Made by a program: the position numbers and the translations under genes. Under the pieces are notes generated by a model. It was not told where the DNA came from, did no database searches, and saw only the letters and a list, made by a program, of their open reading frames with translations. DNA of 64,000 nucleotides from Ophiosphaerella korrae (lineage: Eukaryota; Ascomycota; Dothideomycetes; Pleosporales; Phaeosphaeriaceae): the NCBI GenBank assembly GCA_028456385.1, contig JALNQF010000165.1, forward strand, positions 33,675-97,674, read 5' to 3'. This document shows positions 1 through 23,164 of this stretch, piece by piece. Positions within the stretch are counted from its first letter, which is position 1. Each line of letters begins with the position of its first letter.

Positions 1-203
1 GACTGGAACATACAGTGGGCGCTTGATGCTTTATATGTGTATCAGTCACGACTCTTTGTCATCATCGGGATAAGTTGCATGACTGAGAGATATATCACAT
101 GACCCGCCTCATACGAGAACTCGGGGGTTTTGCCGTCATTTCTCCAAATAGCATTGAGCGGCTAACATGGAATGGCTCACTTCCGGCTGTGTATATACTT
201 TAG

Positions 204-780
204 AAAGTCACTGAGAGCCAGTGATTCTGCTACCTACAGCAGCTGATGTGCCACCACAAACACCATGTCCAGCACATGTGGAGTCATCCTCTGTGGCGTA
301 GTTTGATGGCGATACATGGACCTCTTCACAGAGTTACCAAGAGCCTATGGATCTTGAGCAGGATCTCAAGTTCAAGCACATGACACTGCAAGGCGTACAG
401 CACATGGGGCGGTGATGCCATCTATTCTACACCATGACCAACACGCATAAAGCAATGCTGCGTGGCACAGCTCAAAGGCGTGGAGTGTCCGTCTCAGAGT
501 CACTGAGGGCCTATGATTCTCGAGCAGTGCCTCGAGTAGCAGGCACGTAACCCCGTGGGGCGTACACCATATGGGACAGTGATGCTATCTATGGCATCTA
601 GTGACCACGACTAACACCACGCATGAATTGATGCGTTGAAGCGGCGCTCCTTCAATGGGCGCTTCTCACACCCGGATTCACGGAGAACCTATGAAATCTG
701 AGTATTGCCTCAAATAAGAAGTGCATAACCCGCTAGATGTGCTGTAGTGGAGGCAATGAGGCTTTTGTGGCGCATGTTAC
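204..780. repeat. Degenerate tandem repeat region with no convincing gene
   Basis: Related blocks recur near 204, 329, 494 and 674. Each begins with a variant of GAGTCACTGAGGGCCTATG, followed by a cytosine-rich stretch and then 'GGGC..ACA.CATATGGG.C.GTGATGC'. Spacing is about 125-180 bp and identity between units is moderate, so these are old, diverged tandem copies. A 100-codon minus-strand reading frame (1035-733) overlaps the last part, but has no recognisable domain and I do not call it a gene. I see nothing else of note in bases 1-1032. Confidence 0.45.
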
Positions 781-1032
781 TTCATTTGTGCTTATGCATT
801 GTACTTGCAAGGCATACTCAGAGCTTGTTGCCCCGTCGTATAGTCCATATGGGCGCTTGCATGACTCCCTTTGACAGCATATAAGGACATGTTGAACCCA
901 CACCACTTCATAGACATGGCTTCGCCGGCACAAGCATTGGATATACGCACTCAACCTATTTCCCCAATGAATTTTGATGATATCTTCGACATGGTGTGTT
1001 ACCTCGACTGATGGCGTGTGGAAATGGGCTGA

Positions 1033-2870
1033 CACCTCAAGGCATTATACGGACCTCCGAAAGAAGCCGACAGAACAGAAAAGAAGGCCTGCCAGAGGTG
1101 TGAAGAGCGAGAAAGCGAGCTCGGCTTCCTGAAGGTCGTCGTCATATGCCTTTTGTCGGTCGTTCAGAGTTTGAATAACTAATACCCTGCTCGGGACGCT
1201 GAAGTTGCGCCTGGGTCTGGGTCAACAACTCGTCCAGAAGCGACCACAACTCTTCCAAACAGTGAAGCTACTGCAAAGCCTGGTCAGGCTGAGGTTCTGG
1301 CTGCGGAGAATTTCAGCGACATTGCTATGGAGGTCACGGCCCAACATGCAACGGAAACCCTAGATCGCAGTGCAACATCCGAAAGCCATCGCAATGCCAC
1401 CACTATCGACCTTAGCGACCTCCCGGATGGAGAGGCCAGCTACATCACGGGATCTATTGACACCGCAAGTTCTAGTGCACCACAGATCTCGGTGACATGG
1501 ACACAACCTTCCACATGGCCGATTTGAGAATGTGTGAAGCAGAAAGACTAAGCAGCGAGGAGGCTGTTAGCTCTCAGACGAACAACGAGCGTCCGGAAAA
1601 CGACAATGGTACGGAATCGACCAAGCAAGCGGTCAAGAGACGGCAGACTGGGCCTGTGGAGACTATCAAGTCCCCAGCAATCATGATCATGGACGAGGAG
1701 GCCAAACAACCTAAGGAGGTGACAGTTCTTCAGAAGGAGGTGACGCCTCTTGGAACCGTCAGGTTGGAAGGGGAGCCGATGGCCATTGACAACGACCAGA
1801 ATCATCGTTTTGAGGGAGCAGGTGTTTCCACAAACACCATGACACCGGTCATTGATACGGCCGAGGAAGGTTCCGAGGCTTCTGACCCTCCTGAGAGCAC
1901 CCAAAATCGACAAGGCCAATCTACCACAGCAGCAGTTGTTTCCAGTGAGGGCGAGGCCAGCTGTCTCGAGACTAGTGAAATGCACGTAAACGTCACGATG
2001 TCTAGAGACTTTAACCTGGAGTCGAGGACGGAAGATCATCTACGAAAATCGCCCCTGAGCTTTTCCAATCGAGCCAACGATACAAGAATTTCCGATGACG
2101 CAAGCAAGTCAAAATCCCAGCTCCGCGACAAAACCTCGGCCAAGAAGCGGCGTACAAAAACGAGCCGCTCTAGGTCACCTGTCAGAAACAGCTTTTATAG
2201 TTGTGAAGTGATTGTGATATCTGACGACGAAGAGGAAGATCAAGTCAAAGTTGAGCTTACGGACGACGCTGCACTCAGATTGAAGAAAGATCAGCGAATG
2301 GATATTGACCACGACGATACCGAGGTCGACAACTCGGACGAGATGTCTAGTGACTACGACGAATCCGATAACGCAGGATTGCTTCCCTGGGGAAATCCGG
2401 ACTTCGAAGAGCAAAACCAGAAGAAAGTTGACGACCTGTTTCACGATGTGCAGCGACATTGGTTGCGTTTCAATTCTCTCAGATCTATGCGAGCCCACAT
2501 GTGCGTGCATACGTTCAGTCAGTCGTTCAATGCCCTCGCCAGAAGGGCCGCTGCCGACGGCGGTCTTACGGACACTGATTTGGAAGAATTACAGAAAGAG
2601 TGGGCCATATTTGAAACTAGTATCATGCCCAAGGTGAAGAGGATCAGTCGAGAAGTGCGGCGCAAGGCCGAGGAGAAGAGAAACAAGGAGCACAAGAAGA
2701 AAGCCAATCAGGAAAAGCGCAAGATCCATGAGATCAGCAACGAAGAGCGCAAGGTCAAGTGCATCAGTAAGCTCATACGCCGTCTATATACCATGGGACA
2801 TATGCAATTAATCATCAACTCATGTGGGATGACAGATGGGGACAAGAGCGACAAGAATTACAAGCCATGA
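1033..2870 (+). CDS. Hypothetical nuclear-type protein, low complexity with basic C-terminus; 5' end unresolved
   Basis: The firm part is the frame open from 1497 to 2870. It is acidic in the middle (IVISDDEEEDQ, then DHDDTEVDNSDEMSSDYDES) and ends in a long lysine/arginine-rich helix (KRISREVRRKAEEKRNKEH), which suggests a charged coiled coil and a nuclear location. Upstream, frame 1 is open from 1183 to 1527, with an earlier part (1033-1180) containing a CxxC motif (ACQRCEERES), as in fungal zinc-binding proteins. A GT..AG intron at about 1492-1559 would join the two frames in phase; a second intron is needed near 1135-1210 to skip a TAA at 1180. I do not recognise the family. Codon use looks normal and no stop lies within the main frame. 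The start codon is unknown: 1497 is only the first ATG of the long frame, probably inside an intron. Confidence 0.6.
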
Positions 2871-3174
2871 AAGCACTTGGACAGATATAAATACAGTTGC
2901 AATCCAATCAAGTTCAAGATATAATCCTTGGGAACCAATTTGCTCTGCCGCTCCCAATTCAATCAGCCGTCCTGACGTGCTCCTCAATCTCCCGGATAAA
3001 GCCCAAACGCCACGATGAATCTTCCTCCTCTAACTTCGGAAGGGTCTGAATTTCGCAGATCCGCGCATTCGACAGATCTGCAGAGCCTGATCCCTGCCAT
3101 GGTGTTGGTGTTGGAGTCTCTCCAGCGAGCGGGGACTGCTTTGAGGTCAGCTTCGTCAATCGTCTTGCTGCAGT

Positions 3175-3594
3175 TTAGCCTACGTATTGCTGGCGTCGAT
3201 AAAGCTCCGCGCTAACAGTATCAAGGTTCTTCTGCAGGGCTACGTGCTCGGTCCGATGTGCGTCAAGCGCGGCGTACGCGGCATGGCACGCGGCTTGCCA
3301 CTGAGTCAGGTCGTGCGTCAACCTAGTTATGTGGGTCTCTAGCTCCATGCGTTCGTTCTGCACGGTCCAAAGCTCGTTGCGAGTGGCATTGTGCCCCCAA
3401 ATCTCCCAATCCAGGATCTGCAACAGTTGCAGGTACAGATTCGGCGATGGATAGCCTGCACCTGCGATCGCCGGATGTTCGAGCTTTGCAGGCCATGTTG
3501 GTCGCTGTTGGATCTGTTCGTCTGCTGATCCTTCGCTGGGTTCAGGTGCAGGATGCACACAGATAAGCGATGGCCATTTCAACGGTGTCGACAT
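3175..3594 (-). CDS. Small hypothetical coiled-coil protein
   Basis: The ATG at 3594 gives a 139-residue protein starting MSTPLKWPSL. Its C-terminal half (about residues 60-135) is heptad-like, with ELWTVQNERMELETHITRL and further leucine/alanine-spaced stretches, so a coiled coil is likely. The same frame stays open upstream to 3747 through the microsatellite, which would add a run of more than 20 serines. I prefer the inner start because the serine run comes only from the ATG repeat read on this strand. No known domain is visible. It lies tail-to-tail with the 1033-2870 gene and head-to-head with the kinase-like gene, so the 3.6-4.0 kb gap may be a shared promoter. It could be a truncated relic. 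Confidence 0.45.
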   Translation of the reverse strand: MSTPLKWPSLICVHPAPEPSEGSADEQIQQRPTWPAKLEHPAIAGAGYPSPNLYLQLLQILDWEIWGHNATRNELWTVQNERMELETHITRLTHDLTQWQAACHAAYAALDAHRTEHVALQKNLDTVSAELYRRQQYVG

Positions 3595-3617
3595 ATTGTT
3601 CAATGATGATAATAGTG

Positions 3618-3618
3618 G

Positions 3619-3684
<66 letters not shown>
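3618..3684. repeat. ATG/GAT trinucleotide microsatellite
   Basis: About 22 uninterrupted copies of a TGA/ATG/GAT triplet. Its three frames create artificial poly-Met, poly-Ser and poly-His reading frames on either strand. It sits just upstream of the ATG at 3594 of the minus-strand gene. Confidence 0.95.
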
Positions 3685-3685
<1 letters not shown>

Positions 3686-4035
3686 AATCCAGCGCACGAC
3701 TTGCCACCCCTCTTATAGCTGCACAGGCCCAAATGCTCAACGGACATTGTGCAAGAACGATACCTAGGACTGTAAGCAGCATTCCTGATATCCGTACAAA
3801 GCGACTCACGTTCCTGAGGTGTGTTTTCGGTTCCAACGTTCCCCGTTGCACCCCTCCTAGCTCCAGCGGCTACGACGGCGCAAAGTCGGCAAGATCATCA
3901 GGGAAGCAGTGGACAGCCTTCCCCCACCCCACCCAACACCCTCTTTCACGTTCACGTCAAAAAATTGACCTTCCTAGTAGATCAGTGTCTATAGCGGTAG
4001 CAGCCTGACATTGCTCTACGTAATGATGACACCTA

Positions 4036-5039
4036 AGGCCATAGAGGACGCTTTTCAGCGACACCCAAGACCACAAAACGTCCCAACGAAGGCAGCTCTA
4101 CTACAAAAATCCCTCCAAAAGTCTCTCCCTGCCGTGCTCTCCACCTCGACGTCCTCGACTTTGTCAACATCCATAACACGCAAATTTGCTTTTTCTCAGA
4201 CAAATTGGTAATGGTGAAAAAGACCTCGCCCGAGTTCGGGAGGAGAGAATATGACCGAACCTCGTCATTGCAACCCCTTGCAAACGTGGCCACCCTGCGA
4301 CAGTGTTTCGAAATGGACGACTTCTGGTATATGCAGTACGACTATTCGCGCTTCACTCTTGAAGAGATTCTCAATATCCACATGCGCCTTGAGGAAAGCC
4401 ATATACGAATTATTGCAAGCTCGGTAAAGACTGTAACATTCTCATCCCTCAAATGCACTCTACTGATACTTTAGATTTTTCTGGCAATTCAACACATAGC
4501 AAGTGCTGGGATCGTTCACAGCAAGATTTCCGTCACAACAATCCGTTTCTGTAGCAGCGGGATACCTCTTCTATGTCCGTACACTCCTTTGCCTAAGAGA
4601 CCTACGAGCTGAATTTCCTGTAGCAAACTTTGAAAATTGTGTTAAAACGAGTCCCGAGAGGGATGCCGGTCACGATCTTGAGGACCTTGGCTCGGTCGTT
4701 CTAGAATGTATGAACGGCAGCTCAAGCGATCATCTGCGAGACAGAGACACAATACGCCAGTTGCGGAAGCAGAGTAAGATGTTTGGCCTGGCGAACGGCG
4801 AAGCCTGGAGCGGGCATAAACTTCTACTTGACTTTCCTGACCACATGTTCAACGAAGCTACGTCGGTGCCGGCAAAACTTCAAAAACCAGTAAGTAAGAA
4901 CACTAATGCAGTCAGCACGAACTAAAGATCCCAGCACAAATATGTCACCAAGGATTTGACCCATGCTAGGCTAGTACCGTTTCTAGAATTGGTACCACTC
5001 GAGTGTTTCGCGCTGTGGCGTCCGGCAGATCCAGCATAG
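4036..5039 (+). CDS. Protein kinase-fold protein lacking catalytic motifs (pseudokinase), 5' end unresolved
   Basis: Exons read as <4036-4423, 4475-4574, 4624-4889 and 4935-5039, joined in phase by three GT..AG introns of 51, 49 and 45 nt. The spliced product follows a kinase domain in order: a beta-3-like lysine (VMVKKTSPEF), the helix C to hinge region (WYMQYDYSRFTLEEILNIH), then AIQHIASAGIVHSKISVTT where active kinases have HRDLK..N, then SNFENC where they have DFG. The late helix region (HDLEDLGSVVLECMNG) and the final helices ending in PFLELVPLECFALWRPA follow. The catalytic Asp of HRD and the metal-binding Asp of DFG are both absent, so it is probably inactive; that is inference from two motifs. 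The frame is open back to a stop at 4033 but has no ATG, so an upstream exon is missing from this model. Expanded families of such degenerate kinases are known in Dothideomycetes. The clean splicing argues for a gene that is or was recently functional. Confidence 0.7.
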
Positions 5040-5171
5040 CCCTGAACGGGGAACATGTTGCAGTTTCCCGTCCTCTGTCTTAGGCTTCCAGTGATCTTGC
5101 TTGTTAATTTCTTCGAGAGATATGTACATATATACCAATAGACATTGCGCATCTTCTTTGCCATACCAAAC

Positions 5172-5762
5172 ATGTCTCAATCTCATCACACTAACCCACA
5201 GTCAGGCGCTGAACCCTCTTGGGACGAAATGTTCTTTTTCAATCCTACAAGCCAACCTTTCGAGCCCTTCCAAGGCGATGCACAGAATCCGGGTTCAGTC
5301 CCTGACATCCTAGGTGGATGCACTCAAACAGGACCGCTTGTTATCGAGCAAGACCTCTCCATGATCAATGGCAGCTTCACTGGGCTCAATCACTCGGCAG
5401 CTCACATGTGTCAACCTTCCCAACCTTTCTAAATGCAGGGTCAATCAAGCAACTCCACCTTGACAAAGTTTCAACACGAGCTTACGAAAGTGTATTTGAC
5501 CGTATGGGAGCTGAAGAACGAGTATGAGCTAAAGATCTGCCACATTGAAAGGTAGCGTCCTTAGAAATTAGAGAAATCTACCACACTAACATCACGAAGC
5601 AAACTTGTTGAGGCTCAAGCGACAGCTCATAGCCTTCGCCAGGATGTGGATGCCCTTAAAGGGTACGTTAAGGTCCTCATGGGGTGTATTGGGGCACTTG
5701 CTGAGTTGGCTGCCGACTTAGAGGGAATTATACCAAAAGCTAAGGAAAAGGTTAAGGTGTGA
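5172..5762 (+). CDS. Three-exon hypothetical coiled-coil protein, 166 residues
   Basis: The model is exons 5172-5407, 5450-5551 and 5600-5762. The second intron (48 nt) is convincing: GTAGCG donor, CACTAAC branch site and GAAG acceptor, all in phase. The first (5408-5449, 42 nt) is less certain. The N-terminus is rich in Ser, Pro and Phe (AEPSWDEMFFFNPTSQPFEP). The C-terminal two exons form a helical stretch (LTKFQHELTKVYLTVWELKN, then EAQATAHSLRQDVDALKG) typical of a coiled coil, and the end is lysine-rich. I do not recognise the family. An AT-rich TATA-like stretch lies about 40-50 bp upstream of the ATG, near 5125-5137. It runs in the same direction as the kinase-like gene just upstream, with only about 130 bp between them. 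Confidence 0.6.
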
Positions 5763-6526
5763 CGTGCAAACAGAAAACTAGCTCTCTGCGCACGAAAACC
5801 AGATCCTAGGTCGTGTATCAAGTTTCCCTGTACAATAATCGCGCTTAGTTATATAACACAATACAAAAGGTTAACATTGTATACATATGCCTATTTTATG
5901 TTCATACTGAAGATGTGTCGCCTTCACTGCCGTACCATGTACGTTTCGCTCAACCAGTCGTTCATTCTGTCTCGAGGAAGCCGTCAAGATCCAAGTTCTT
6001 ACACATAAATCTACTAGAAGATCATACGGATAGGTGCATCGCTTGTGAACCCCTGCTGCACAATCGCACCCCATACCGCTGCCGAAGAGGGGGATTTCTC
6101 CGTCGACTAGTGTTGAAGGATGCATTGCTTCGAAAGGACGGCAAAGTATAGAGCACAAACAGATGCGGTCCACCAGCACGACTCGAGATACCGACCCAGT
6201 ACTGGGCTGTGATTGCTACGTTGCGATTAGATTATTAGTTTTGGTACGAACAAAACCATAGCTCTTCGGTCTAATGCGAGATGCCTTCCTTTTTTTGGTC
6301 TAAATTATCTTATATGATCTGTGCTTAAGCCGCGCGTGTATGTTCCATGTTGCATGTGGCTGCATGATTCGCCATTTGTACGGCGTCTCTTCAGGAACGT
6401 GCATTAGCTGGCATATCGAATTATCTCGCTTGCGGAAGTAACTGTTCGATTACCGAGCGCATCATAAGACAGGGCTAAGCGCGCCTGCAGGATGATCGAA
6501 CCTGTTTCCGGTATCCTGGTCTCTCC
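5763..6526. other. Intergenic, no gene seen
   Basis: Normal base composition with scattered stops in all frames. Short frames at 5915-6151 (plus) and 5871-6179 (minus) overlap each other and show no domain, signal or codon bias. Nothing further to report. Confidence 0.6.
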
Positions 6527-6626
6527 TACGCCGTACGGGCAGGCAACGAGATACTCAGACCTTCCAAGTTGAGATGTCGACGGCGGGTGCCGTTCCCGAG
6601 GATGCTTATCATGATTCCGTTGGCTG

Positions 6627-6861
6627 CACCAGTGCCGGCAATAATTCGTGCGCGCTGCCTCGATGAGCTAAGCCAACATCAAAGTTGCGTGTCTCAACGA
6701 TGCATTGAAATAATTCTCAAGAAACTTCATACATGTATGCTTATACTCTGTAAATGATCAAATGGCTTTACAGATGTTCATATCTGCGTTGCGCTGGTGT
6801 AGGTGTTGGCGTTGGCTTGGCTAATGTAGACAGCGCGCACGAATTATTGCCGGCACTGGTG
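6627..6861. repeat. Inverted repeat, 50-bp arms around a 135-bp loop
   Basis: The left arm is 6627-6676 and the right arm 6812-6861. The outer 31 bp of each arm (6627-6657 against 6831-6861) match perfectly as reverse complements, with a core of GCCGGCAATAATTCGTGCGC. The inner 19 bp match with a few changes. A CCGTACGG palindrome lies outside each arm at 6531-6538 and 6925-6932. It may be a small non-autonomous DNA transposon or the stem of a foldback element. I found no clear target duplication. Confidence 0.75.
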
Positions 6862-7013
6862 GCCGTGCGGACGACCGTCTTACGGAAACACCGAGCGCGG
6901 GCACTATACTACTGAGAGTCCAGCCCGTACGGGTTAGAAGGGGCTAAGGAACACACAGTCATGGAACGATTATGCCTCACGGATGACAGGAACCCGGCCC
7001 CCTTTCGCGTGAA

Positions 7014-7607: not shown

Positions 7608-9325
7608 CTAGCTCATGGAGCCGCCACGAGTGAACCTCAGTCTGGACATCCTACTCACTGCTGTCTCCACTGGCTGAAACGCGCAATTCGTGAAGTCTAT
7701 GTCGTGACAGCTCGAACGAACCGCCTGACGAGCCCGGAGTTCAAACGTTGTGCTTCCGCAGACTGCGCATAGCTTAGCAGTGTTACTATTGAAGATCCTC
7801 TCACTTACCCGATATCAGCATATTGCCGGCTTCCGCTCCCCATTCTTGATCAATGAACCAGCCCATGTCGAGGTTGCTTGACATCGGCAACATTCGCCGT
7901 CTCGAATTCCGCTTGGCCATGCTCTCTTCTACGGTTTCTTCTACCTCGCTAGGATAGAAGACGAAGATCGTGAGAATCTGTCGATGATCCAGATCGTCTA
8001 ATGCGCCGAGAAACTCTTCTGCCCATTTGATCTGGTCTGTGTTTGTCAGGCCAAGCTCGTGGGGCGGAAATAGACGTACCTTGACTCTCTAGAAGCCATG
8101 CTATGGTCAGACGTCTGACACGAGCAGTCTGCGTATTGTGCGCGAGGAGTAGATACCTTGCGGTATTCAGATGGGCTGCAATCCCGATACCGCTGGACAG
8201 CAGGAGAACTTTGTCGTAGCTGTCGAGTATGACGGCGTCAGATCCTCCGTATGGACCGTCAATGAAAGCCCGTGGTAGGCTGTGAGCCATCTTGAGTCTG
8301 TGTGTAAAACCATTGTGTGACTGCACAATGAGAACCATAGTTTTCGCTCGACCGCTCTCATCATCTATAGTCCACGCGACCATGAAAGGATGAGCTTCCA
8401 TGATACCGGGGCCAAATGCGCGAAGTGCTGGTACTGAGAGATAGACAAATTCTCCTGGCTTGACCTTCCAACCTCTTTTCACATCGATGTGTAACTGACA
8501 CACTTCGCTTGGTGACCCTGGGTGTGTGTAATAGGATGCAGTAAGGCGACATTGCGGACCCATTCCTATGTTTCGATAAAACACAAAACAGATCCACAGA
8601 AGCTTCTGAAATACGAAAAGTCCCCCAGCAGTCGAAAGGCAAGCTATGGTATATGTATCGAGGCGTGGTATATGAAGCCAAAGCAAGATCATGGCTGCAA
8701 TTGATCCAAGGGAGTGGATCTGAAGGAATAGCTCATAAGCCTTACGTCGCACGTAGATGAAAGAGAGTAGTGCTAAACTGCTTACGACCGCTAGCAACTA
8801 TATTAAGGTGAGACCAATTTGCTGCGTGGTTCTAGCTAACAAACTTACAGACACATCAATTGGATTGAAACTTGGGCCGCTTTGGAGCATGGCTATGGTA
8901 CCGTGTATCAAGCCCTCGGTGACGGATACTCGTCCAATCCATCGATGGAGGAGATGATGCTCCTGGTGCGAAAGTCGGAAGAATTTGTCCAGTATAATGT
9001 TCGATCTGCCTCCTATGTAGAGAAACACAATATTCGTGACGCAAAGCTTCGCAAGGCGAAGAGAAAACTCGACGCGGGTCTGTACGGAAAGTACGCAAAC
9101 TACGACATTCGCGATGATGAACGCAGCCAGAACAGCAGCTGTAATGACAGTGACATCTGAACTCCCATTCATACGGGGAACTATCACAGAATAGACTACC
9201 CATTTGTAGAAAGACGCCACCAAACGCTCGCGGACCTTGCCAGCAAGGGATTGCGAGAGTCTCCATGCGAGAAGAACTCCAACAGCAGAGGCATAAGCGA
9301 TTGTGTAGACGATTATAGTTCTCAT
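7608..9325 (-). CDS. Ferric reductase-like transmembrane oxidoreductase (FRE family)
   Basis: Exons on the minus strand are 8849-9325, 8080-8797, 7809-8036 and 7608-7762, with introns of 51, 43 and 46 nt all in phase. They give 525 residues. The N-terminal half has several membrane segments and a four-histidine haem pattern: LLHRWIGRV (His near 127), GLIHGTIA (141), LQIHSLGS (187) and LLWLHIP (201). The second half has the FAD-binding signature EAHPFMVAW (around residue 300), then GPYGGS and the NAD(P)H pocket LLLSSGIGIAAHL. The last exon carries the family's usual C-terminal VCGS element. The family moves electrons from cytosolic NAD(P)H across the plasma membrane to reduce ferric iron for uptake. 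It is shorter than many members, so an N-terminal exon may be missing: an open frame beginning MDPGPYDPQ lies at 9408 and upward. There are no in-frame stops, in contrast to the pseudogenes to its right. FRE genes are common Starship cargo. Confidence 0.88.
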
Positions 9326-9761
9326 TGTTGGGGTAAGGAAGTTTCGAAGAATGGCTGGCTATGAATATGCAACAGAACATTATCTGGGGATCGTAGGGAC
9401 CTGGATCCATTGACCCAAGCACGGATGTTCGCAGCAGACTGTTTCCCGTCCTTTGCTAGGACGTCCAAATTTGGCATACCGTTTGGCGCGGCTCGCTTGC
9501 ATATTTCACCGCGCCTAATAGGTACTATTTAGGACGGGCGCTTACAGTAGTTCTAGAACCAATAAGTAGCTGCGACTAGTATAATGTACTAGTCATGCTT
9601 CCCCGCCCACTTTCCCATTCTGAGCTGGATGGCAACTAGTAGGAAGACAGGTAACAGCTCTCTGGACTTTTGAAGACCCGCTGCAGACTGCACAAAGCCG
9701 GAAACCTACTTTTTTCGTATCACTGCTCCTAGTGCTCGCGTTCTACATCCCTGTGCAAGTC
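9326..9761. other. Intergenic between divergent genes
   Basis: This stretch separates the start of the ferric reductase (minus strand) from the MADS-like pseudogene (plus strand) and would hold both promoters. A possible extra first exon of the reductase lies at its left edge (about 9340-9422, minus strand). I see no other structure. Confidence 0.5.
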
Positions 9762-10798: not shown

Positions 10799-12990
10799 CT
10801 AAAGTTCGTCTTCACTCTCTACCACCTCCATATTCTCGCTCTCGTCTTTCTTCCCGTCCCTAATGACACGACTTCCACTACTATCTTCTTCTGTCAACAA
10901 TTTTCTTTTTTTCGTGTCCAGTTTAGCGTAGCGAGGCACTGTCGTCTCATCCGTGACCCTTATGAGAGAAGTGTTCTTTACGGGCATAAGCTTGACGTTA
11001 CGCTCGTTACTTCTAGACATTATGTATTTGTCCACAACATCCTTGGATCCGATAATAATAGTCGTCCCAAAGAGGGCGAAATACTGCAGTATCCAATCTG
11101 CTACCATAGAGGCATTCTTCCCAGAAAGTGTGATAGCTTTTACTAGTGGTAGAAGATGTTTCATCGCTGCGGATATAACGTCCTTAACAACAGTTAAGGC
11201 ATCCGAATCATCAGGCTTGATTTCAAACCAGCATCCAATGACCTAGCCATCAGTCTCATTCGAAGAGGCCACGAAAAGCTCGTACACGCCAAAGCTCATC
11301 CTCCATATCTTATAACTGTTAGAATCCCGTAACATAGACGTAATAGAAGCCTTCGTGGCTTTAGTGGAGACGGCAAACGGGGACGATTGGGCTGCCTGTA
11401 ATGCATTTGTTCTCTGCAGCTCTTCGTACCGCTAAAGCACAACGTTGTACTAAGTTCGAAGCTCCTTATCACTACTTTGTGTCTCTGCATCTTCCAATTC
11501 TTTACAACGTCTCTTCAAAGAATTATTTTCTTAATCGAGGTCCTGCTGTCGCTTGTGCATAGCAGAAAGCTTGATTTCTAGCAACTCGTATCAGTGCTGA
11601 AGGTCATCCTTGCTCTTTTGTAAGTCATCGTTCTTCTGTAGCATTGTTTTGATCCTGTCGTGCTGTGTGCTATCACTTGCTGTTAGCATTTGCTGAATGC
11701 TATCAATGTCCATATCTCCTGATTGCTGGCTATACGGTTTAACGAGCCTGGGCTCACTAAAATCGTAGTCCTATAGTCTTCGTGAGCGACTACTTAATTA
11801 ACATTTCTTAGTCTATAACAGACCTTCAGACTAAATTCGCCAAGAATGCAGCAAGGAAGCAAGCGGCGAGCTACTAGTAAGGTCATATAGTTCTGAGAGT
11901 GCAGTTTAAAAAGGGTTAGAAAGAATAAGGTCTCTTTATCCTCAATAATATCGCGTTCAAAGGGTCGGCTAATTCGTCTTTCTCTTTCTATACTGACTTC
12001 CTCTTAACTATTAGAAGTCTCATTAACTATACCTTCTGTTCTGCGATAAGTGGCGTCCACGATTCTCTATACATCAGTGTCAGTGAAACAAGCTACGACC
12101 GGATTAGCCTTTTCAAGATACTATAATACTAGCTCGGAAGCCGGTTTACTATCTACTAAGGCCTGGGCGTAAGATAATTTAAAGCCTCAAGATATAGCAA
12201 GCTCGGTAAGCAGCTTCTATACTACGGTGTTTAGTCCCTTATATATAGGCTTCATACCTTTACTTTCCTTTCTAGGCGTAAACGTGGTCAAATAGTCGAA
12301 ATACCGTACAGAAAATACCCAAAGCTTAAAATATACGACCCGCTTAGCATCAGTCTTAGTTACCTGACTCTTTAATTCGACCTCGTGAGTATTGGAAGAA
12401 AGCACCATAACTTTAGAGAGAGCCTAAAAGTTACCTATAAGGCTCTTCCGGATCGTTCTACGTATATCGTCCCCTATAAGCTGTCTTAGCGCAGCGCATA
12501 TTAGCTCAACGTATTTAAGCATTTCGAAGAATAATTTGAGCGAAGGTATTATTCCCCGAAGCGCCTATATCCTATCCTTGATCGTTACACGAACGTGTTT
12601 ATCGACGATTGTAGGAAAAAGCTCGCCCTTTCTTATAAGTTCGGTGACAAGGTCTTTGTCGGAGGCGTAATGCTGAGGGGCACGGAACTCTAACAATTCG
12701 ACTGTCGTCACGTCTACGCATGATGGTGACACAGCCACATCCCCATACCCAAGAATGCTTGTCCAAAACTTTTCAATATGATCCAGATAAGAGACCATCT
12801 CCTACTCCTTCCGTGAGAAAAGCCACATTATAAGCGAACAGGATTCGTACCTCTTCGCATTTGAGTACAAGTAACCTGTGAAGGGCTCCAAGTTGTACAC
12901 CTTGCCAGAGACCTGGAACTTCTTTGAGGATACTACCAGTGGGGCGAGAATTACTAAAGAGGCGTGTCAGGAGTTTCGAAATGTTATGGC
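10799..12990 (-). pseudogene. DUF3723-type protein, RIP-like stops, N-terminus missing
   Basis: Reading right to left on the minus strand, an exon ending at 12851 encodes VPGLWQGVQLGALHRLLVL and KCEE. A 49-nt intron (12802-12850, GTACGA..TAG) follows. The next exon encodes EMVSYLDHIEKFWTSILG, TVELLEFRAPQHYASDKDLV, then IIPSLKLFFEMLKYVELICA. This order matches the conserved core of DUF3723 as I know it. The frame continues to about 11.87 kb, interrupted by stops that are mostly TAG where CAG is expected (after KDRI, GNF and LNTVV). After a frame change, the C-terminal part (about 11750-10799) is a coiled coil (DSIQQMLTASDSTQHDRIK) ending in the acidic MEVVESEDEL. The N-terminal part is not found: the HET tail lies there on the other strand. 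The function of DUF3723 is unknown; the family is a known accessory gene of Starship elements. Confidence 0.72.
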
Positions 12991-13435
12991 GCAGGTAAGG
13001 ACGTGGTGTGAGTGGAAATTGGAGCAACTGAAAAGGTATCAAACATCCCTTCCCCAGCGCTGTTCCTTTACTCCAACTGACTTCCGAATCAGAGAAGCAA
13101 CCGGCCTACCCACCCTCCCACAACCTCTCCCGGACTCCGTCCTCCAACAAATCACACCCGAAACGCCGACGCAACTCCTCATCGCCAAGTTGATGTTCTT
13201 GACCGATAGACAGCTTTTCAACACCGCAAAAGGATACTTTGGACTTGTTATCAAAGGGGCGAAGTCTGGGGATCTGGTTTGTGATTTTAATACGGCGACG
13301 ACGCCGCATGTTTTGCGGAAAGTCGAAGGAGAGGAAGAGGTGTATGAAGTCGTGGGAGATGCGTATGTGAGCGATTTGATGTATTGTCGGGTGGATGGGT
13401 TGGGAATTGAGGAGAGGGATATTGTGCTTGTTTAG
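12878..13435 (+). pseudogene. C-terminal fragment of a HET (heterokaryon incompatibility) domain protein
   Basis: The reading frame of 185 codons ends in the conserved C-terminal module of HET proteins: AKGYFGLVIKGAKSGDLVCD, then PHVLRKVEGEEEVYEVVGDA, YVSDLMYCRV and a final IVLV. HET proteins trigger cell death after fusion of incompatible hyphae. The N-terminal HET domain itself is not present. Its place is taken by the antisense DUF3723 sequence, which overlaps the first 100 or so bases of this frame. The true junction between the two relics is probably somewhere in 12.93-13.05 kb, because the first 30 or so residues of this frame are also the antisense of a well-conserved DUF3723 motif. 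No in-frame stop is present, so decay is by truncation, not point mutation. It could instead be the last exon of a gene whose earlier exons I cannot see. Confidence 0.6.
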
Positions 13436-15481: not shown

Positions 15482-16475
15482 TTATGCCTTTATTTCTTCC
15501 CTCTCCCGTTCCAGACTGTGAGTACGTCGTCCAGCCTTGATGTTTGGTATCGAGGCCGTGCATACGCTGCAGCCAGCGCGTGAAGCGGATGACGAGGGTT
15601 TGGTGAGGGGGAGACAGGCGCATATCAATCCGGCGGAGGATTCGGTGGCGGTCAGGACGATGTCGAGGTAGTTCATGTATGCTGGGTTGAGGCGGTGGGA
15701 ACGATTGTAGAAGTAGATTGTCCCCCGGACAAGGGAGACGGTTGAGGCACTGTGGTCGTATGTAAGTGCTGTATGTATTTGCGAGCTGTTGACTTACACC
15801 CCGCTAATGCAGAATATCGAGACCAGCGCAATCTTCTGTTTTCTGCGCATCTTCAGCCGAGAGACCATGACAACCGGCAGAAGCATGAGGAGCATGTCCG
15901 ACAAGGCATTGAAGATCCCCGTTGTCGGCACCGCTATCCTGCCAAAGTCGTATCTAGGTAACGTGCCAATCTCTTGTAGTACCAGCAGTATCAGACCCGC
16001 CAAAGTCCATGGTATCGTCAGAGTCATCAGCATCCACCAGCAGTACCGGAACCACTTCTGACGTAGAGTGAACGTGCGGTGATAGAGGAAGAGGATCGAG
16101 AGCTTGACGAGCGTAATCGCGATGATGTACAAAACGGCAAACGATAGCGTGGTGTTTGTTACGAATTTCTGTTCCTTTGTACTTTGCTGCGAGACATCTT
16201 GGAGGTCGAGCGCCCCGAAGGCTGTCAATAGTAGCCCAGATAGAAACAGGCCGAGGTTTGCGATCTATATCATTAACATGTGGAAATGATGAAAGAGTGG
16301 GGAGGCTCACAAATGCAAAGTAGCAGAGGTAATCATCAGTTGCTGGCGACGTCTTCATCATCCTACGTGGTGCTGTTCGCCCTCCCACCGCAGCTGTAGT
16401 CAACACGACGTCGATGGCCAGAATGGTATACGCTGGCACACTATAGTCCGCCGGGACGGAATTGTTCGCGCCCAT
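15482..16475 (-). CDS. Fungal rhodopsin-family (Fung_rhodopsin) seven-helix membrane protein
   Basis: Exons on the minus strand are 16311-16475, 15798-16264 and 15482-15749, with in-phase introns of 46 nt (GTGAGC..TAG) and 48 nt (GTAAGT..CAG). They give 299 residues. Hydrophobic segments follow one another: YTILAIDVVLTTAAVGG, LCYFAFIANLGLFLSGLLLT, LSFAVLYIIAITLVKLSILF, WWMLMTLTIPWTLAGLILLV, then the segment ending in LLMLLPVVMVSRLKM and RKQKIALVSIFCISG. The KLSILFLYHRTF motif and the R/K-M-x-x-x-QK motif after helix 6 are typical of this family, and the last exon has the usual LDIVLTATESSAGLICACLP. Members are plasma-membrane proteins of mostly unknown role, some related to Pth11-type receptors. 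No extracellular CFEM domain is present. The open frame, clean splice sites and short acidic/basic tail (LEREREEIKA) point to an intact gene. Confidence 0.88.
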
Positions 16476-17297
16476 GTTGTCTACTGATCCGGGCAGATGA
16501 AAGGATGTGAATGCAAGACTGAGTGGGGAAGGATTAGAAAGATGAGCCTAATGCCAGCAAAGATGACTGTTGTACAGCTCGCGCAACCTACAGAATTGTG
16601 AGAGCACACGCGATCGCGTTTCAGGTCGACATGTCCCGAGCATACAATACCGCGCATCATGGACTCATAGATGGATAAGCTGCGTAAATCAGGTCTTACT
16701 CGTCCCAAAGGATTCCGGTTCGGGAACGTTAGGTACAGGCTAGGACAGGGCTGATTCGTGCTTGACCGAAACGCCTGCCATGTGGCCTCGGCATGGGGGC
16801 TTCTGGCCTGTAGCTAGCTGGAAAGGGAAAAGGTGGCAGTGCATGTCGCATGCAGTTTGCTCTCAGTCTTGCTCTTCATGTCGTGCTGTGTTGCACGATT
16901 CTGGCGGTCAATGTGGTCCTTCTATGAAAGGGATTGCAAGATGAGGGATTGTTGAAGAAGTTGCTTGAAGTACATGGCAAGTATTGCTGGACTTGGTTTC
17001 GCGAAATATCCTTTGCTGATGAGTGTATGCATGGTGGTTTGTTCCAATTTCAAAGGTTTCCGGCATCGTCATTGCACAGCGCTAGACGAGCTATGCCCAA
17101 ATGGGACACTAGCGTCTACCTCCATCCGCCCAGCGACCTCCAGGCGCGTTCAGTTTAGCTGAATTTCCTTCGGTTTTGTAAGATGATCAGCCCGGACACT
17201 CAACCCAGAGCATTTCATGCCTGGCGGGGGAGCACTACCTTGCATCGGGATATTTCGGGGAATAAGCTCAAGACGTCAGCATAACGCCGAGCATGCC
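16476..17297. other. Intergenic, no gene seen
   Basis: Between the start of the rhodopsin-like gene and the end of the F-box gene, both on the minus strand. Short frames at 16481-16708 and 16934-17162 have no recognisable features. Nothing RIP-like is seen. Confidence 0.55.
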
Positions 17298-18500
17298 CTA
17301 TTTCCGAGGAATATGCCAGCTAAGTGGTCGGTTCCAAAGCTCGTAAGCATAGTTGTAACCATAGGAACGGTCTCTCAGCCGAATAGCTGGATGGTCTGAT
17401 GAAAATGACTGATGCAAGCCCATTCCGCGCCTGCGAAACATGACAAGCAGTTCCTCGAACATGTCTATCCATTTAGCATCTGGCAGAACTGGATGACCGT
17501 CAGCTTCATGCCAGAGTCTCCTCACGGAACCGGGTCCAAATCTTTCATCGAGCTCTACTCGAAACCTCTCGTCTGTTCGTGGGCAGGCCATGGTCAGCCA
17601 GCTCCAATCGAGTGGCGATCGACAGCTGCCCAGCTGGCTATAGATGCATATCTCGACAACGTAGCCTTCGCTTTGACCTTGCCAAGATACATTGATACTG
17701 TAGTCTGTGTGGCAGATTGGACACGACCGAGTTGAATCGTCCGAAAGGGGGGATGCTTCGGGAGTATCTGCCTGGATGGCAAGCTTGGGGGACTGCGTTA
17801 ACAGAGGGTCACGAGATGCATACAGATGCCAACAAATGGGTCGACATGTATGTTTGATATTCTCTCGCAAGCTCTTCGAATCGCGTTCTCGTTGAGAAAT
17901 GATGATCTTTGTTATTACCAGCAATTGATCATGGACGATGCGTGCGTGACGAGCTGAGGACTGCTTGACACTGTTTCTGTGATATTCCGTATGTGTTTGC
18001 TTGTCGAGGAAGGTTGGAAGTGGACCGTGTTCGCAGCCGCGAAAGTGTCGTTTCATGACCAAGTGCGCATGCGAAAACGGGATTTGGATGAATGGTGAGA
18101 AATAGATGTCATCTCCGCCATGCTGGCGCGGTGTGTGCTCTGAGATCCAGCGCAAGATAGAATGACTCCAGTACCCGTGCCAGCGATGCAGTCTCCCACA
18201 ATACCGACAGAAATAAGCATCAGCGATGTTGTCCTCAAGGTACTGCAATAGCTGGGTCCTCTCCGCCGCAGTCAACACCGGCTGTCCAGGAGTACAGAGG
18301 CTATATAGATCTCGGCAAGTGAAGGCGAGGAATGTTGTGGAAAGACCATCAAGATGCGACGTGATCATCAAGATTATCTCTGCAGGAAGAGCGAACCTTC
18401 CCAGATCCGACGGAGGGGATGGCTGCCGAAAGAGCCTCTCGAAGCGTCGACAGAGCCACTGAGCCATGGCACGGAGCAATATCTGCGTCGGTGGCGACAA
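17298..18500 (-). CDS. F-box protein with Cys-pair motifs, 400 residues, intronless
   Basis: A single open frame. An F-box lies at about residues 34-70: LGRFALPAEIILMITSHLDG, then LSTTFLAFTCRDLYSL, with the usual LP.EI...I...L pattern. It would bind Skp1 and recruit targets to an SCF ubiquitin ligase. Downstream are two cysteine-pair motifs, YFCRYCGRLHRW (residues 97-108) and SCPICHTDYSI (259-269), seen in many fungal F-box proteins and perhaps zinc-binding. The C-terminus has WNRPLSWHIPRK. ATGs at residues 1 and 12 are both possible starts; I keep the first. Target unknown. There are no in-frame stops, and codon use looks normal. Confidence 0.85.
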   Translation of the reverse strand: MSPPTQILLRAMAQWLCRRFERLFRQPSPPSDLGRFALPAEIILMITSHLDGLSTTFLAFTCRDLYSLCTPGQPVLTAAERTQLLQYLEDNIADAYFCRYCGRLHRWHGYWSHSILRWISEHTPRQHGGDDIYFSPFIQIPFSHAHLVMKRHFRGCEHGPLPTFLDKQTHTEYHRNSVKQSSARHARIVHDQLLVITKIIISQRERDSKSLRENIKHTCRPICWHLYASRDPLLTQSPKLAIQADTPEASPLSDDSTRSCPICHTDYSINVSWQGQSEGYVVEICIYSQLGSCRSPLDWSWLTMACPRTDERFRVELDERFGPGSVRRLWHEADGHPVLPDAKWIDMFEELLVMFRRRGMGLHQSFSSDHPAIRLRDRSYGYNYAYELWNRPLSWHIPRK

Positions 18501-18937
18501 CGTCAGGGAACGTCGTATAGACGAATGTTGAATGAGGATAATTTTAGGGGCTTGAAGATAAACTGGTGGAGGAATGTAGGCTAGATAGTGAGGTCCTGCC
18601 CTGCCACTCTGCCTACTTCGATAGCTAGCGTACCGCGCAACAGATTTCCGGCGTGACCGCCACTAATCGCACGCGGTACCAAAGTTGAGCGTCACAGAGA
18701 GGACATTGAGCGGTAGAGAAGAGCACCGTTCAACAGTGATGCGGATATTTGTCATCCAAATGTGGATTCGTCATCGAAAAGCAAATCAAGGAAGTAGAAG
18801 TGGGGATGGAGTTGCGTGCTTTGTCCGTCTCTTCACGAGCTTGGCGCGACGACGCGACGACAATCCTGCATACGCATCCATGAATGAACAGCGTCACAGT
18901 AAGGGGCTTCAGATAAACACAGTATTGTCATTCAGAC
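18501..18937. other. Intergenic, no gene seen
   Basis: Separates the F-box gene start from the end of the DUF3435 relic. A plus-strand frame 18685-18981 overlaps the relic's end and has no features. Confidence 0.5.
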
Positions 18938-21870
18938 TCATGTACAAGCTCTTTTATGTAGATAAGAATCATCGATGCTGAAGCGTGTTATCAGGCTCCC
19001 GTTCACCGTTTCCAGTTTCCCGCTCACCGTCTCTCGCTTCGCGGTCCCTGCACCTGCACTAGCTTCTGCGCCTTCTCGGCCTAGCGCAAATTCACCATCC
19101 TCACGTCCGCGTCCGACTGCGTACCCAACTTTGTTCCCATCGTGCGCATCCTCGTGCTCGTATTCATGTGCGTTCTCCTGCCCCTTCTCAGGTGATTTCC
19201 TCTTGCGATTGATTCTCTGAGGTCCGAATGGTGGGATACCATGTGCAGAATTAGCATGCTCCCAAAAATGAGCTTCTGACTCGATTCGCGTTTCGCATAG
19301 AGGATGAGGACACATAGTAGGCAGCGCAATAAGTTGAGTAATGTGCGTTTTTATGTGCTTGTGGAGATCGTAAGTGTCGGGATATTATGCGAACCGATCG
19401 TGCAGTATCTTTTCCTCATTGCCTAAGCAAAATAGACAATGAGCCGCTACTACTACGACGCCGCCACGTCGGATAAGTCTGCAATAATCGTTAAGAGGCT
19501 TAAGATGATGGTACTCGAGGTGGGCGGTCTAAACCCGCTCTGACTTAGCCTAAAGATTGTGCTCGTAACAGTATTGCATGAATGTATGTGTTGTGTGTTC
19601 TGTAGGGATCCTATGTGCTGTAGAGACATGGTACGATAGACCATTTAGATGATTCATGACAACGTAGCAGCCTTTCTAGAGGCATTGTCTCGACTGATTT
19701 TGACGAAGGTGGTCTGTCACGTGCGAGACATAGAGCCGGCTGCTCTTGCCAGTAAAGCGATGGCTACAATTATTCCATAGACAAGCAGGGTGCTGGCGAA
19801 ACTGCTGCAACATAAGTTGCTCCGCTTCTTTTACTTTCTCCTGTCTGGCGCACTTAAGTAGATGTTTGTTCATCCTTTCAGGTCGTGTACTATATCGTTA
19901 GAAGCTTCACGAAGCTCTTGCGAAGCTTACTTACAGCTGTAAAGGACTCTTGCATACGCGACAACGATTCTCTTGGGTGGGCTCTGCATCCTGGTATGCA
20001 TAACGCGTTCGCGTTGGGCAAGCCCATCTCGTCAGTGGTTCCACAAGATCCTTCAAACGAATTATGTTCTCCTCTTCTTTCGATGATCCTGTTAGGGAGC
20101 AATCATCCTTTGAGAAGTCGTCATCGCTTTCTGTTGCGCTGCTAGAGTCATCCACGCTAAAAGCATCAGGATAAAGCATCATGGCAGCCTTTCGGCGGTG
20201 TGGCTCATGCTTTAAGAGTGCTTGTAAGTATCGTGAGGGCGACCGTGTAAGACAGGTCGAGTCCACGGGACTTGAGTCGCAAATGCCGTCCTTTATGAAG
20301 GTTTCCAATCGTTTGTGGTACATACGCTTCCGTGACTGGCGCCTGAATTCGTACTCCTATGCTGGAGAGAGTTCTGCTACAGTGATTGAACCATGCGGAG
20401 ACTCTGACAGCTTCGCCGTGAACCCGAATCTGTTCCGAATCGACTTATCAATGAGCTGCGCGCCTAGTGGCTTAGGTGCTAACAACTGTCTGCTAGACAT
20501 TATTAAAATATGGCTCTCGATAAAGTTCTTCTGCTATAGGCGACTATAGACAATACTCTGCGTGTCAATCCTGACGACAGATGACATGTAAGACTGCATG
20601 ATCTTATTGTTCGAGTGTCCCATAAGTTGCTGCCGATAGAGGTCCTAGATACTCCCTGCACTATATAAGTAAATCAGTAGCTTATGTAATTATCGCCGAC
20701 ATACCTTATATCGCATTCGCATAGCCTCGCCAGAAACAGTATGCAGTCAGTCTGTCTTTATATCTAGCTCTTTAACCTAAGCTCTTTATCTGATTACCGA
20801 AGCAGTTATAATTCCAGATATTATTATTAGATATCATTATGTCAGGACGCAAACTACGCATGACAGGTTATTTATCCTTACCTAACCTATAACAAAAGGT
20901 GTATCTTGTGGCGCCTGGCGGTATCTCTTTACTTTCTATATTATCTATAGACTCAACGTCTTCGAACACGCAGTCAGCTAGAGCTTGGGCAAGGAACCAA
21001 GTGACAGGGCAAAGGGCTCGATCGTGTGGCCATTCGTAGAGTACGAGACGTGGTCTAGTATATTAGTCAAGCTCCTCAACCTTTCGCTGTTATACTTACG
21101 CGTATTTCTAATTACTTCGATGTCCCTTACAATTACGAAGACATACTTGTAAAGCGAACCTAGTATAGTTAGTATTATCCTGCCGCATGACTATTACATT
21201 ACCGTAGAGTAGCCCTTTGTTGCTATTCTTCTACTCAACAGATTCTATGACTTCGCCTAGACGACTGCCCATGAAGGTCAATAGAAGCAGAGAGAATATG
21301 AGCTGTACGACTATACGCGAGTGAGGCGATTTGTACTCATTGTATACCAGCAGGAATCGCATAAGGTCTTGTGTGACCGCCAATAGGGCGATAGGCTTTT
21401 TGTATGCTCGTATAGAAAGATTCTTAGTCCTCAGTAACTCAAACTCGATAAGCTAGTTTAGTGAGTATTTTGTAAAGTTATAGTAACACGCGGCGATACA
21501 TATAGCAGCAAGTTTCTGATTCTGGGCGCTATTGTACTAGTAATTTGTGTGGAACTTAATAGCGCGTTTTAACACGGAAAGATAATTCCTAAGTATGACA
21601 TTAGTTATCTTCTCGTCGATCTGGCTAACGCTGCAACGAACAAGCTATCGCAGGAACAATTTGATGGTGTCTACAGAAGGCGCCTCCGGGAAAGGTACTA
21701 AGTCGTCGCATGTAACGTGCAGTATTTGTTCTGAGAAACTTAATCTAGTAAGCAGCTGAGCATCTCTTAGATTTATAACACTTACTTAGTCTATAGCTGT
21801 ATAATCGAGCGATAAGACTTCGCACTCGAAGGTATTAGACGTGATTCAACTTCAGCGCGTGTAGGAAGAG
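18938..21870 (-). pseudogene. DUF3435 tyrosine recombinase (Starship captain-like), broken by RIP-type stops
   Basis: Read right to left: near 21.87-21.4 kb an N-terminal SAM-like helical part (DTIKLFLR, stop, LVRCSVSQIDEKITNVILRN, then YLSVLKRAIKFHTN). The recombinase core follows: LLLLTFMGSRLGEVIES at about 21.24-21.29 kb (box I arginine), CKGHR, and ALCPVTWFLAQALADCVFED near 21.0 kb. CFWRGYANAI near 20.72 kb is the usual RRG box with one Arg changed to Trp. MGHSNNKIMQSYMSSVVRID at 20.62-20.56 kb carries the catalytic Tyr. The same frame runs on through 19.93 kb (C-terminal Ser/Asp/Glu-rich part and CRVCKS), then C2H2-like pieces (PACLWNNCSHRF; CLFCLGNEEK; MCPHPLCETRIESEAHFWEH), the standard tail of this family, and a basic end. 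Stops are mostly TAG/TAA at expected Gln codons. At least one intron is likely near 20.66-20.70 kb. It is not functional as it stands. Confidence 0.82.
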
Positions 21871-23164
21871 AGGTTGTGACTTATGTGTCCTTTGCACGTT
21901 CCTGCAGGTCGCTAACAAACGTCGAGTGTGTGCCTCGCTTCCGACCTATCCTCTGATGCGCGATTGCAGCTGAATTCAAGTGTCGTCGTCGTCGCGGTGA
22001 ATTAGGGCAATGAGCAATTAGGCTGATCTGCAGCTATGATCATGAAGGAAAGGAGGAGGAGGAGGAGGAGGAGGAGGATAAGTATGGCGCACGCTCATGT
22101 TCCCCCCTATGCGCCGCTTGCACAGCAGACCCCAATGCCCAATGCGCACATGGCTAAGGGTGCCTTGTTGCTTATGTCTGCTAAAAGCTGTAAACAGGAT
22201 CGTGGTGGGCAGGCGGCACAGCTAAAGTAGTTGCACGCGCCCGGTTGAACTTCAGAACACCAGCGCCTAACAACCGTTTCCAGAGAGCGACTAAAGCAAA
22301 TAACCCGTAAACGGTACCTCGAAATCTGGTTGATCAGACAAGTGAACTAGCACTCAATTGTTCATATATTGTCGTTTTCTTCCAAACAACCGTTTCTAGT
22401 AGCGCGTCTCCCGTTTTCGGTATCGCGCATTTAAGCGCTATACTTGTAAGCTAGGCTTATACATTTCTATTTTACTTTCTTATACTATCTAAATTATAGG
22501 TTTACAATAAACTTAGGGCGTAGTATGTATATCTATTACACGCTTATCTTTCGCCCCCTAAGGTATAATCTAGTTGTCAGATTTGAAGGAGGTTATAGCA
22601 GTTTGATAAAAAGGCTTTTTCGTAACGGCCATGTGAGGGCCTTGTTGGAGAGGGATACTGAGGCTTTCAGAAAAGCCCTTTTTCAGATTGATCACCTATG
22701 ACTTGATGGCACTGGGTATGAACTGAGTGGATTGATCCTGCTGTCTATCTCTGGCCCTGCGCTCTATCTATGTATCTGCGATGCGGCGGTCTCGGCTGGG
22801 TCTCTCGAGACGGCGGCGAGCCGGATCCTCAACACCCCTTCTGTTGAGGTGCTGGTTTCTTTGTTGTATTAGTCGTGCTGACGTAGTCCATCTCCTTGCA
22901 TGTGAGATTCTTTGTTCGATTCCTTTGTTCGTGAAGGTCGAGGCTGCGATCCTTTCAGCTGCGGCGGGGTTGGCGGCTTGGCGATCGCACATGTGATCGC
23001 GCATCTAATCGCGCATCGAGCATCTGATCGTGCAACTCATCTAACACTAGTAGCCTACTATTACACTTTAATATATATATTCTACTTCTCTTTTACTCTT
23101 TTTTATAACACTATAGCTCCTAGAAAGCGTATTTAAGACTTATTATACCTACGTATCTTTACAT
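21871..23164. other. Transition zone between gene region and RIP block
   Basis: No gene is supported. A 14-bp direct repeat ACAACCGTTTC(C/T)AG occurs at 22270-22283 and 22386-22399, in the region where the 5' end of a captain-led element would be expected. Composition drops to AT-rich at about 22.44-22.56 kb, rises again at 22.58-23.0 kb (including a GC-rich stretch with short ATCGCGCATC-type repeats at 22981-23036), then falls for good at about 23.05 kb. The frames at 22768-23004 are shadows of each other. Confidence 0.5.
22051..22078. repeat. AGG trinucleotide microsatellite
   Basis: About nine copies of AGG. It produces an artificial poly-Arg frame at 22036-22230, which I do not regard as a gene. 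Confidence 0.9.

What the first reader, a model, noticed from the sequence alone, without database searches (positions are those of the whole stretch)
1..22400. Possible remains of a Starship giant transposon (captain, DUF3723 and ferric reductase together)
Three gene families that define or typically accompany Starships lie within 15 kb: a DUF3435 tyrosine recombinase (18.9-21.9 kb), a DUF3723 protein (10.8-13.0 kb) and a ferric reductase (7.6-9.3 kb), with a HET-protein fragment between. The recombinase is at the right edge and reads leftward into the others, the layout expected of a captain at the 5' end. Seen: the motifs and the order. Known: these families are recurrent Starship genes. 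Inferred: that they once belonged to one element. No element boundary has been demonstrated, and the right flank is RIP-degraded.
Basis: partly seen in the sequence, partly recalled or inferred. Interest (0 to 1): 0.85.

Follow-up and report, generated by a model that had tools for sequence, protein, structure and literature searches.

The report
Broken fungal Starship-type gene cluster
A stretch of fungal DNA holds broken copies of genes that often ride on giant 'Starship' transposons, lined up as in such an element, but no edge of an element can be shown, so it is most likely an old wreck of a known kind of element.

Summary
The genes are real. Six-frame Pfam scans find DUF3435 (20.7-21.4 kb), DUF3723 (11.8-12.9 kb) and a ferric reductase (domains 8.2-9.0 kb), all minus strand; a HET C-terminal fragment lies at 13.1-13.4 kb. 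The recombinase is a near full-length relic (about 18.94-21.88 kb) with stops and a zinc-finger-like tail. DUF3723 lacks its first 30% and abuts the HET fragment head to head. FRE is interrupted.

The RIP-degraded right flank is not an element edge: it begins with a high-copy repeat near 23,169, and a young solo LTR (22,575-23,046, TSD ACTAG) lies between it and the recombinase.

For a Starship: on 3 of 3 contigs where both families were found, DUF3723 lies downstream of DUF3435 on the same strand (expected 0.25; P about 0.002, or 0.014 with half the genome; post hoc). C845 has the same recombinase lineage.

Against: no second copy found, no TIR or direct repeat above chance, empty site untestable, a breakpoint between the two key genes, and separate RIP marks with unmarked DNA between.

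Best reading: eroded 5' part of a derelict Starship, unproved (0.55); new member of a known kind. Lead: AAACGG repeats upstream of the recombinase here and in one relative, not in two others.

The parts
18941..21880 (-). DUF3435 tyrosine-recombinase (captain-type) relic with C-terminal zinc-finger-like tail; broken by stops
   Evidence: Pfam PF11917; relatives L025, L024; metagenomic P0001 78% and 66% identical over 120 and 230 residues; alignment
22266..22416 (.). Four AAACGG motifs (three in the recombinase's sense, one reversed; two lie in 18-bp direct repeats 22266-22283 and 22382-22399) upstream of the recombinase; possible binding sites or nothing
22575..23046 (-). Solo LTR, 472 bp, flanked by 5-bp ACTAG target-site duplication; 39 other places found, one at 100% identity (C232)
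23169..64000 (.). RIP-degraded block; its left end is a high-copy repeat with an LTR-like terminus; GC 0.18-0.36
11845..12928 (-). DUF3723 remnant, profile 154-506 of 508, 8 stops in the main match, RIP-marked core
13085..13435 (+). C-terminal fragment of a HET protein, head to head with the truncated DUF3723
7949..9358 (-). Ferric reductase gene (two same-frame open stretches parted by one TAG; domains 8,246-9,037; NAD-binding part downstream only a weak match, frames shift)
15596..16210 (-). Fungal rhodopsin-domain gene (PF20684), no second copy found, no RIP mark; one stop within the match (intron or lesion not decided)
17298..18662 (-). Open frame of 454 aa, F-box-like match below the curated cut-off, no RIP mark, no second copy found

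Best explanation
The locus is most likely the eroded 5' part of a derelict Starship. In a live element (established knowledge) the captain recombinase, the first gene, cuts out and inserts the whole element at a short target. Here (inferred) such an element came in, with DUF3723 and perhaps FRE and others as cargo behind the captain. RIP and other mutations then killed captain and DUF3723 (their broken state is shown). A rearrangement removed the 5' third of DUF3723 and joined it to a HET fragment (junction shown, event inferred). Retroelements landed about 0.7 and 1.3 kb upstream of the relic's start (repeat ends shown) and hid or split the target-side DNA (inferred). The recombinase as it stands can no longer move anything (inferred from its stops).
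For: Near full-length DUF3435 relic with a close relative free of stops, P0001. DUF3723 downstream, same strand, on 3 of 3 contigs where both were found: C74 8.6 kb, C845 33.5 kb, C656 43.3 kb; expected within 50 kb 0.25, P(3 or more) 0.0022, or 0.014 with half the genome; without the window about 0.027 or 0.090. C845 carries the same recombinase lineage, strongly RIP-degraded (index 0.92-1.65), next to upstream DNA with little RIP (-0.05 to 0.39). The triple with FRE is uncommon by chance. Captain, ferric reductase and HET, with DUF3723, are in the reported content of Starship Horizon (PMC9594970, passages).
Against: No terminal repeats above 60 Markov controls; no Rfam match, so no 5S rRNA target, in the window; no Voyager target site. 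No second copy of 3.9-22.3 kb. RIP index of 0.5 or more occurs inside the island only at the DUF3723 core, the DUF3435 core and 22.1-22.5 kb, and every step from 12.5 to 19.3 kb is negative, so no unit holding both genes shows the mark of a repeat. Breakpoint at 12.95-13.09 kb. Of 28 DUF3435 loci only the window's has FRE within 50 kb. C645 and C3, of the same lineage, have no DUF3723 on their contigs; C656's recombinase is of another group. Captain-like genes are mostly orphans: 143 Starships against 10,628 orphan genes (PMC12289983, passage). DUF3723 and FRE were absent from Gaeumannomyces Starships (PMC12134995, passage), so they are no defining marks.
Confidence: 0.55

Rival explanations
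1. A solo DUF3435 gene, never a captain of this island, came in alone or was left behind, and DUF3723, FRE and HET scraps are unrelated residents of a repeat-rich accessory region.
For: DUF3435 and DUF3723 carry separate RIP footprints with unmarked DNA between; truncation and HET junction between them; one pair within 10 kb is expected in 18-32% of random genomes; orphan genes outnumber Starships in a published survey and 'solo' genes are more usual (PMC12134995, passage).
Against: The same downstream, same-strand arrangement on 3 of 3 contigs, one with the same recombinase lineage; uncommon triple with FRE.
Confidence: 0.35
2. Ordinary chromosomal synteny: the genes are long-standing neighbours and the recombinase is a host gene.
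For: F-box-like frame and rhodopsin-domain gene have no RIP mark; no relatives could be compared, so synteny is not excluded.
Against: BCS1, FRE, DUF3723, HET and DUF3435 are interrupted or truncated, and the 28-kb island sits between long RIP-degraded blocks.
Confidence: 0.07
3. Crypton-like small element: only the recombinase and its upstream repeats were the mobile unit, without cargo.
For: Another DUF3435 group in this genome (C261, C364, C5, C402, C656) shares about 1.2-4 kb around the gene in the 4-10 kb pieces compared (the C402-C656 match runs to the end of the shorter piece).
Against: The window recombinase has no second copy by DNA, so no unit ends can be seen; the DUF3723 arrangement on C845.
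Confidence: 0.03

Closest known systems
Starship giant transposons of Pezizomycotina (e.g. Horizon)
   Same: DUF3435 recombinase reading into the body, with DUF3723, ferric reductase and HET genes, as reported for Horizon
   Different: No direct repeats, TIR, empty site or full extent shown; key genes broken; breakpoint inside
Orphan ('solo') DUF3435 genes
   Same: A single DUF3435 gene without shown element edges, as for most of the family
   Different: DUF3723 downstream on the same strand, a pattern seen on two other contigs
Cryptons
   Same: Tyrosine recombinase as mobility gene (recalled)
   Different: No short unit with ends seen; genes of Starship cargo families adjoin

Membership tests
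Starship | DUF3435 tyrosine recombinase (captain) | tested here: met
   PF11917 above cut-off, relic near full length; broken
Starship | Captain is the first gene at the 5' end and reads into the element | tested here: inconclusive
   No Pfam match between the recombinase and the repeats upstream; it reads leftward into the island; the 5' end of an element was not located
Starship | Flanking short direct repeats or TIR | tested here: inconclusive
   Longest shared words 11-12 bases, within the 11-16 of 60 Markov controls; repeats of 4-6 bases cannot be told from chance
Starship | Presence/absence block with empty site | not testable with these tools
   No relatives of the genome are held (output)
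Starship | Cargo genes of recurrent families (DUF3723, FRE, PLP, NLR; not required) | tested here: met
   DUF3723 and FRE remnants, and a HET fragment; no PLP or NLR family at E <= 0.01 in the parts scanned
Starship | Evidence of transposition (copies at other sites, other strains) | tested here: inconclusive
   No second copy of 3.9-22.3 kb in this assembly; other strains not testable
Orphan DUF3435 gene | DUF3435 gene without an element | tested here: inconclusive
   No edges found, but genes of cargo families adjoin
Tyrosine recombinase | Conserved catalytic residues and fold | tested here: inconclusive
   P0001, which begins after box I, keeps box II and the GH..Y part; the relic keeps box I and GH..Y but not the box II arginine (box assignment recalled); model of P0001 too poor, pLDDT 32.5

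The most novel reading that the evidence does not exclude
A captain lineage with a zinc-finger-like tail (window, C645, C3, C845 and metagenomic P0001) travels with a DUF3723 gene placed downstream on the same strand (seen for 2 of the 4 genomic members, C74 and C845), and is preceded by a cluster of AAACGG repeats that could be its own end-binding sites. In 236 kb examined two such clusters exist, both just upstream of members of this lineage (window and C3); C645 and C845 lack the cluster.
Probability: 0.2. Interest if true: 0.45.

Novelty: new member of a known kind. Interest (0 to 1): 0.3.

Why it matters
If it is a derelict Starship, it shows how such elements decay in a RIP-marked genome: captain and DUF3723 marked, retroelements landing beside the captain, internal joins. 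It would also give this fungus three candidate loci to compare (C74, C845, C656). The AAACGG cluster would make captain binding sites directly testable. If not, it is a caution that nearness of DUF3435, DUF3723 and FRE alone does not prove a Starship.

Tried and rejected
Right edge at the RIP boundary: rejected, it is a high-copy repeat end, with a solo LTR before it. TIR or direct repeats between 21.88-23.17 kb and the rest of the island: none above 60 Markov controls. Voyager target site: 2 matches with 2 mismatches, 4.2 expected. Second copies of the island: none for 3.9-22.3 kb; 1-3.9 kb and the left part were not tested, since (1-18.9 kb) could not be scored. Protein searches: the L025 relative gave none of 7992 candidates at E <= 0.001 (its frame is probably broken by introns); the relic gave one protein, P0001, among 5178 candidates. 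No PDB relative at E <= 1. IMG/VR scan with P0001: none. An AAACGG pair left of the window (-2706, -2685) is in a purine-rich stretch of GGAAAC-like words, so it was not taken as the other end. L024 upstream lacks the cluster and C845 has one motif. No Rfam match, no tRNA (bacterial settings). The structure model of P0001 had pLDDT 32.5; the fold search started with it was not collected and is not used.

AT-rich DNA around DUF3435: of 21 loci examined (20 fetched plus the window; 7 of the 28 not fetched), 5 have it upstream only, 2 on both sides, 0 downstream only, 14 on neither: suggestive, not used as proof.

Full report
Setting. The window is contig C74:33,675-97,674 of a 63.0-Mb, 974-contig genome without held relatives. 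The contig is 97,674 bases. A 28-kb island of normal composition (C74 about 29.0-56.8 kb, window about -4.7 to 23.2 kb) lies between blocks with GC mostly 0.15-0.30 and strong RIP indices. Left of the window the island holds a BCS1-type AAA gene whose first frame carries several stops.

Check of the observation. Six-frame Pfam scans of the first 23.8 kb give Ferric_reduct and FAD_binding_8, DUF3723 at 209 bits, a fungal rhodopsin domain and DUF3435 at 39.7 bits. All are on the minus strand. The HET fragment was not found by Pfam. A genome search with it gave 9 other places at E <= 0.001, and the one followed up, on C612, has a HET domain upstream of the matched stretch (a first fetch, took the wrong side).

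The recombinase. Read with X at stops, the relic spans about 18.94-21.88 kb. Two relatives in the same genome, on C3 (L025) and C645 (L024), match its pieces at 27-57% identity. A metagenomic protein, P0001, is 78% identical over 120 residues and 66% over 230. The matched DUF3435 part has 2 TAG and 6 TAA. In the alignment the relic keeps the GSR of the first box and the GH..Y part. The arginine of the second box, kept in P0001 and L025, is not kept in the relic, nor in L024. P0001 begins after the first box. That these are the catalytic boxes is recalled knowledge, not a call. The tail carries cysteine/histidine motifs like zinc fingers (seen in the translation; no Pfam match). A protein search with P0001 adds a RIP-degraded relative on C845, and weak ones on C390 and C2.

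What lies upstream. A DNA search with 21.9-24.6 kb shows a repeat with 39 other places that cover nearly all of its 1.4 kb at 87-93% identity (40 of 3573 candidates were scored, so the true number is likely larger). In 27 of the 39 the match ends between window 23,163 and 23,182; in 11 it ends about 40 bases earlier inside the repeat, in 1 about 25 bases further. The end reads ...CCCGTAACA, as fungal LTRs often do (recalled). A second search shows a repeat at 22,575-23,046 with 39 other long matches, 80-100% identical (40 of 405 candidates scored). It is 472 bp, with TG..CA ends and ACTAG on both sides: a solo LTR with target-site duplication. Longest direct or inverted words between the upstream DNA and the island are 11 and 12 bases; 60 Markov controls gave longest words of 11-16.

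State of the other genes. DUF3723 matches only profile 154-506 of 508. The first exon of an open paralogue on C304 has no counterpart in 9.0-14.5 kb, and of its second exon only the end has. HET similarity begins about 13,085. Two genes that both lack their 5' parts thus meet head to head at about 12.95-13.09 kb. FRE has one in-frame TAG, and its NAD-binding part is a weak match only (E 0.13). The 454-aa frame at 17.3-18.7 kb is open, with an F-box-like match below the cut-off.

RIP. At 400-base steps the composite index reaches 0.5 or more inside the island only at 11.73-12.53 kb (0.85, 1.33), 20.93-21.73 kb (0.82, 0.50) and 22.13-22.53 kb (0.68). Weak positive values (up to 0.33) occur elsewhere, among them at the left edge, and all steps from 12.53 to 19.33 kb are negative. 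Controls: the open DUF3723 on C304 has -0.84, L025 -0.24 and -0.39, L024 -0.48 and -0.73, C912 -0.53; the window cores have 0.63 and 0.43. But some other DUF3435 genes (C5, C278, C209) have 0.36-0.56, so a mild mark is not special to the window. RIP needs duplicates (established knowledge), so DUF3723 and perhaps DUF3435 had homologous copies; leakage from the nearby repeat block could also explain the latter. A duplicated unit holding both genes should have marked the DNA between. It did not. This speaks against a multi-copy element but not against a single-copy one.

Is the neighbourhood more than chance? One search's 45 matches fall on 28 loci, one search's 38 on 22 loci, one search's 20 on 19 loci (merged by me, used). 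One DUF3435-DUF3723 pair within 10 kb arises in 18% of random placements, 32% if only half the genome can hold them; a triple with FRE within 20 kb in 0.4% or 1.9%. With direction, and with C845 added (29 recombinase loci), all 3 same-contig pairs have DUF3723 downstream on the same strand (8.6, 33.5 and 43.3 kb). Expected is 0.25; P 0.0022, or 0.014 with half the genome; leaving the window out, about 0.027 or 0.090. C656's recombinase belongs to another group, and C645 and C3 show no DUF3723 on their contigs. These tests were thought of after seeing the data, and accessory regions cluster such families, so they support the Starship reading without proving it.

AAACGG. Four copies lie at 22,274-22,416, two of them in 18-base direct repeats that are 89% alike. 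In 235,973 bases examined only two places have three or more copies within 160 bases: this one and one in L025, about 170-260 bases upstream of its likely start codon (start read). It is the only hexamer clustered in the upstream stretches of both. L024 lacks it, and C845 has one copy. The motif was chosen from the window, so only the relatives are a test: one of three passes.

Literature. Passages only were read. Captain as first gene, direct repeats: PMC12257634, PMC12153272. Solo genes more usual than captains, DUF3723/FRE/PLP searched as reported Starship genes but absent from Gaeumannomyces elements: PMC12134995. Orphan counts: PMC12289983. DUF3723 as a characteristic feature: PMC11623301. 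Horizon content: PMC9594970, which prints the domain as 'DUF3273' in the list and 'DUF3723' later for another element. DUF3435 and DUF3723 beside a repeat-rich locus without proof of an element, a close parallel: PMC10128009. The founding paper (Gluck-Thaler 2022) was not read.

Verdict. A dead captain-type recombinase and a dead DUF3723 in captain-first order, probably the 5' remains of a Starship, with FRE and HET as possible cargo; boundaries and unity are not shown. The most telling new points are the nature of the right flank, the internal breakpoint, the split RIP marks and the recurrent captain-DUF3723 arrangement.

Noticed in passing
window 6627-6682 and 6806-6861: Inverted repeat with 56-base arms, 88% complementary, 123 bases apart, no other copy in the genome search: a lone foldback or MITE remnant, or a hairpin RNA locus.
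   Followed up: partly
L037 (C845:126800-130000) and C845:162152-163732: RIP-degraded recombinase of the same lineage from about 128.03 kb next to DNA with little RIP, with a RIP-degraded DUF3723 33 kb downstream: a second candidate element, clearer at its 5' side than the window.
   Followed up: partly
C656:7231-8569 and 50574-51296: RIP-degraded DUF3435 and DUF3723 43 kb apart, same strand: third candidate.
   Followed up: no
L014, L015, L016, L008, L033: Related DUF3435 genes (65-93% DNA identity, some RIP-degraded) that share 1.2-4 kb around the gene: a multi-copy group.
   Followed up: partly
window 51860-58858: The same LTR-like start words recur 6,595 bases apart in the RIP block, as if one retroelement were present twice in tandem.
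   Followed up: no
window 4037-4925: Weak protein kinase match (E 0.053, below cut-off) in broken frames: possible kinase remnant.
   Followed up: no
20 fetched DUF3435 loci plus the window: AT-rich DNA near DUF3435 genes lies upstream only in 5, on both sides in 2, downstream only in 0, on neither side in 14 of 21.
   Followed up: partly
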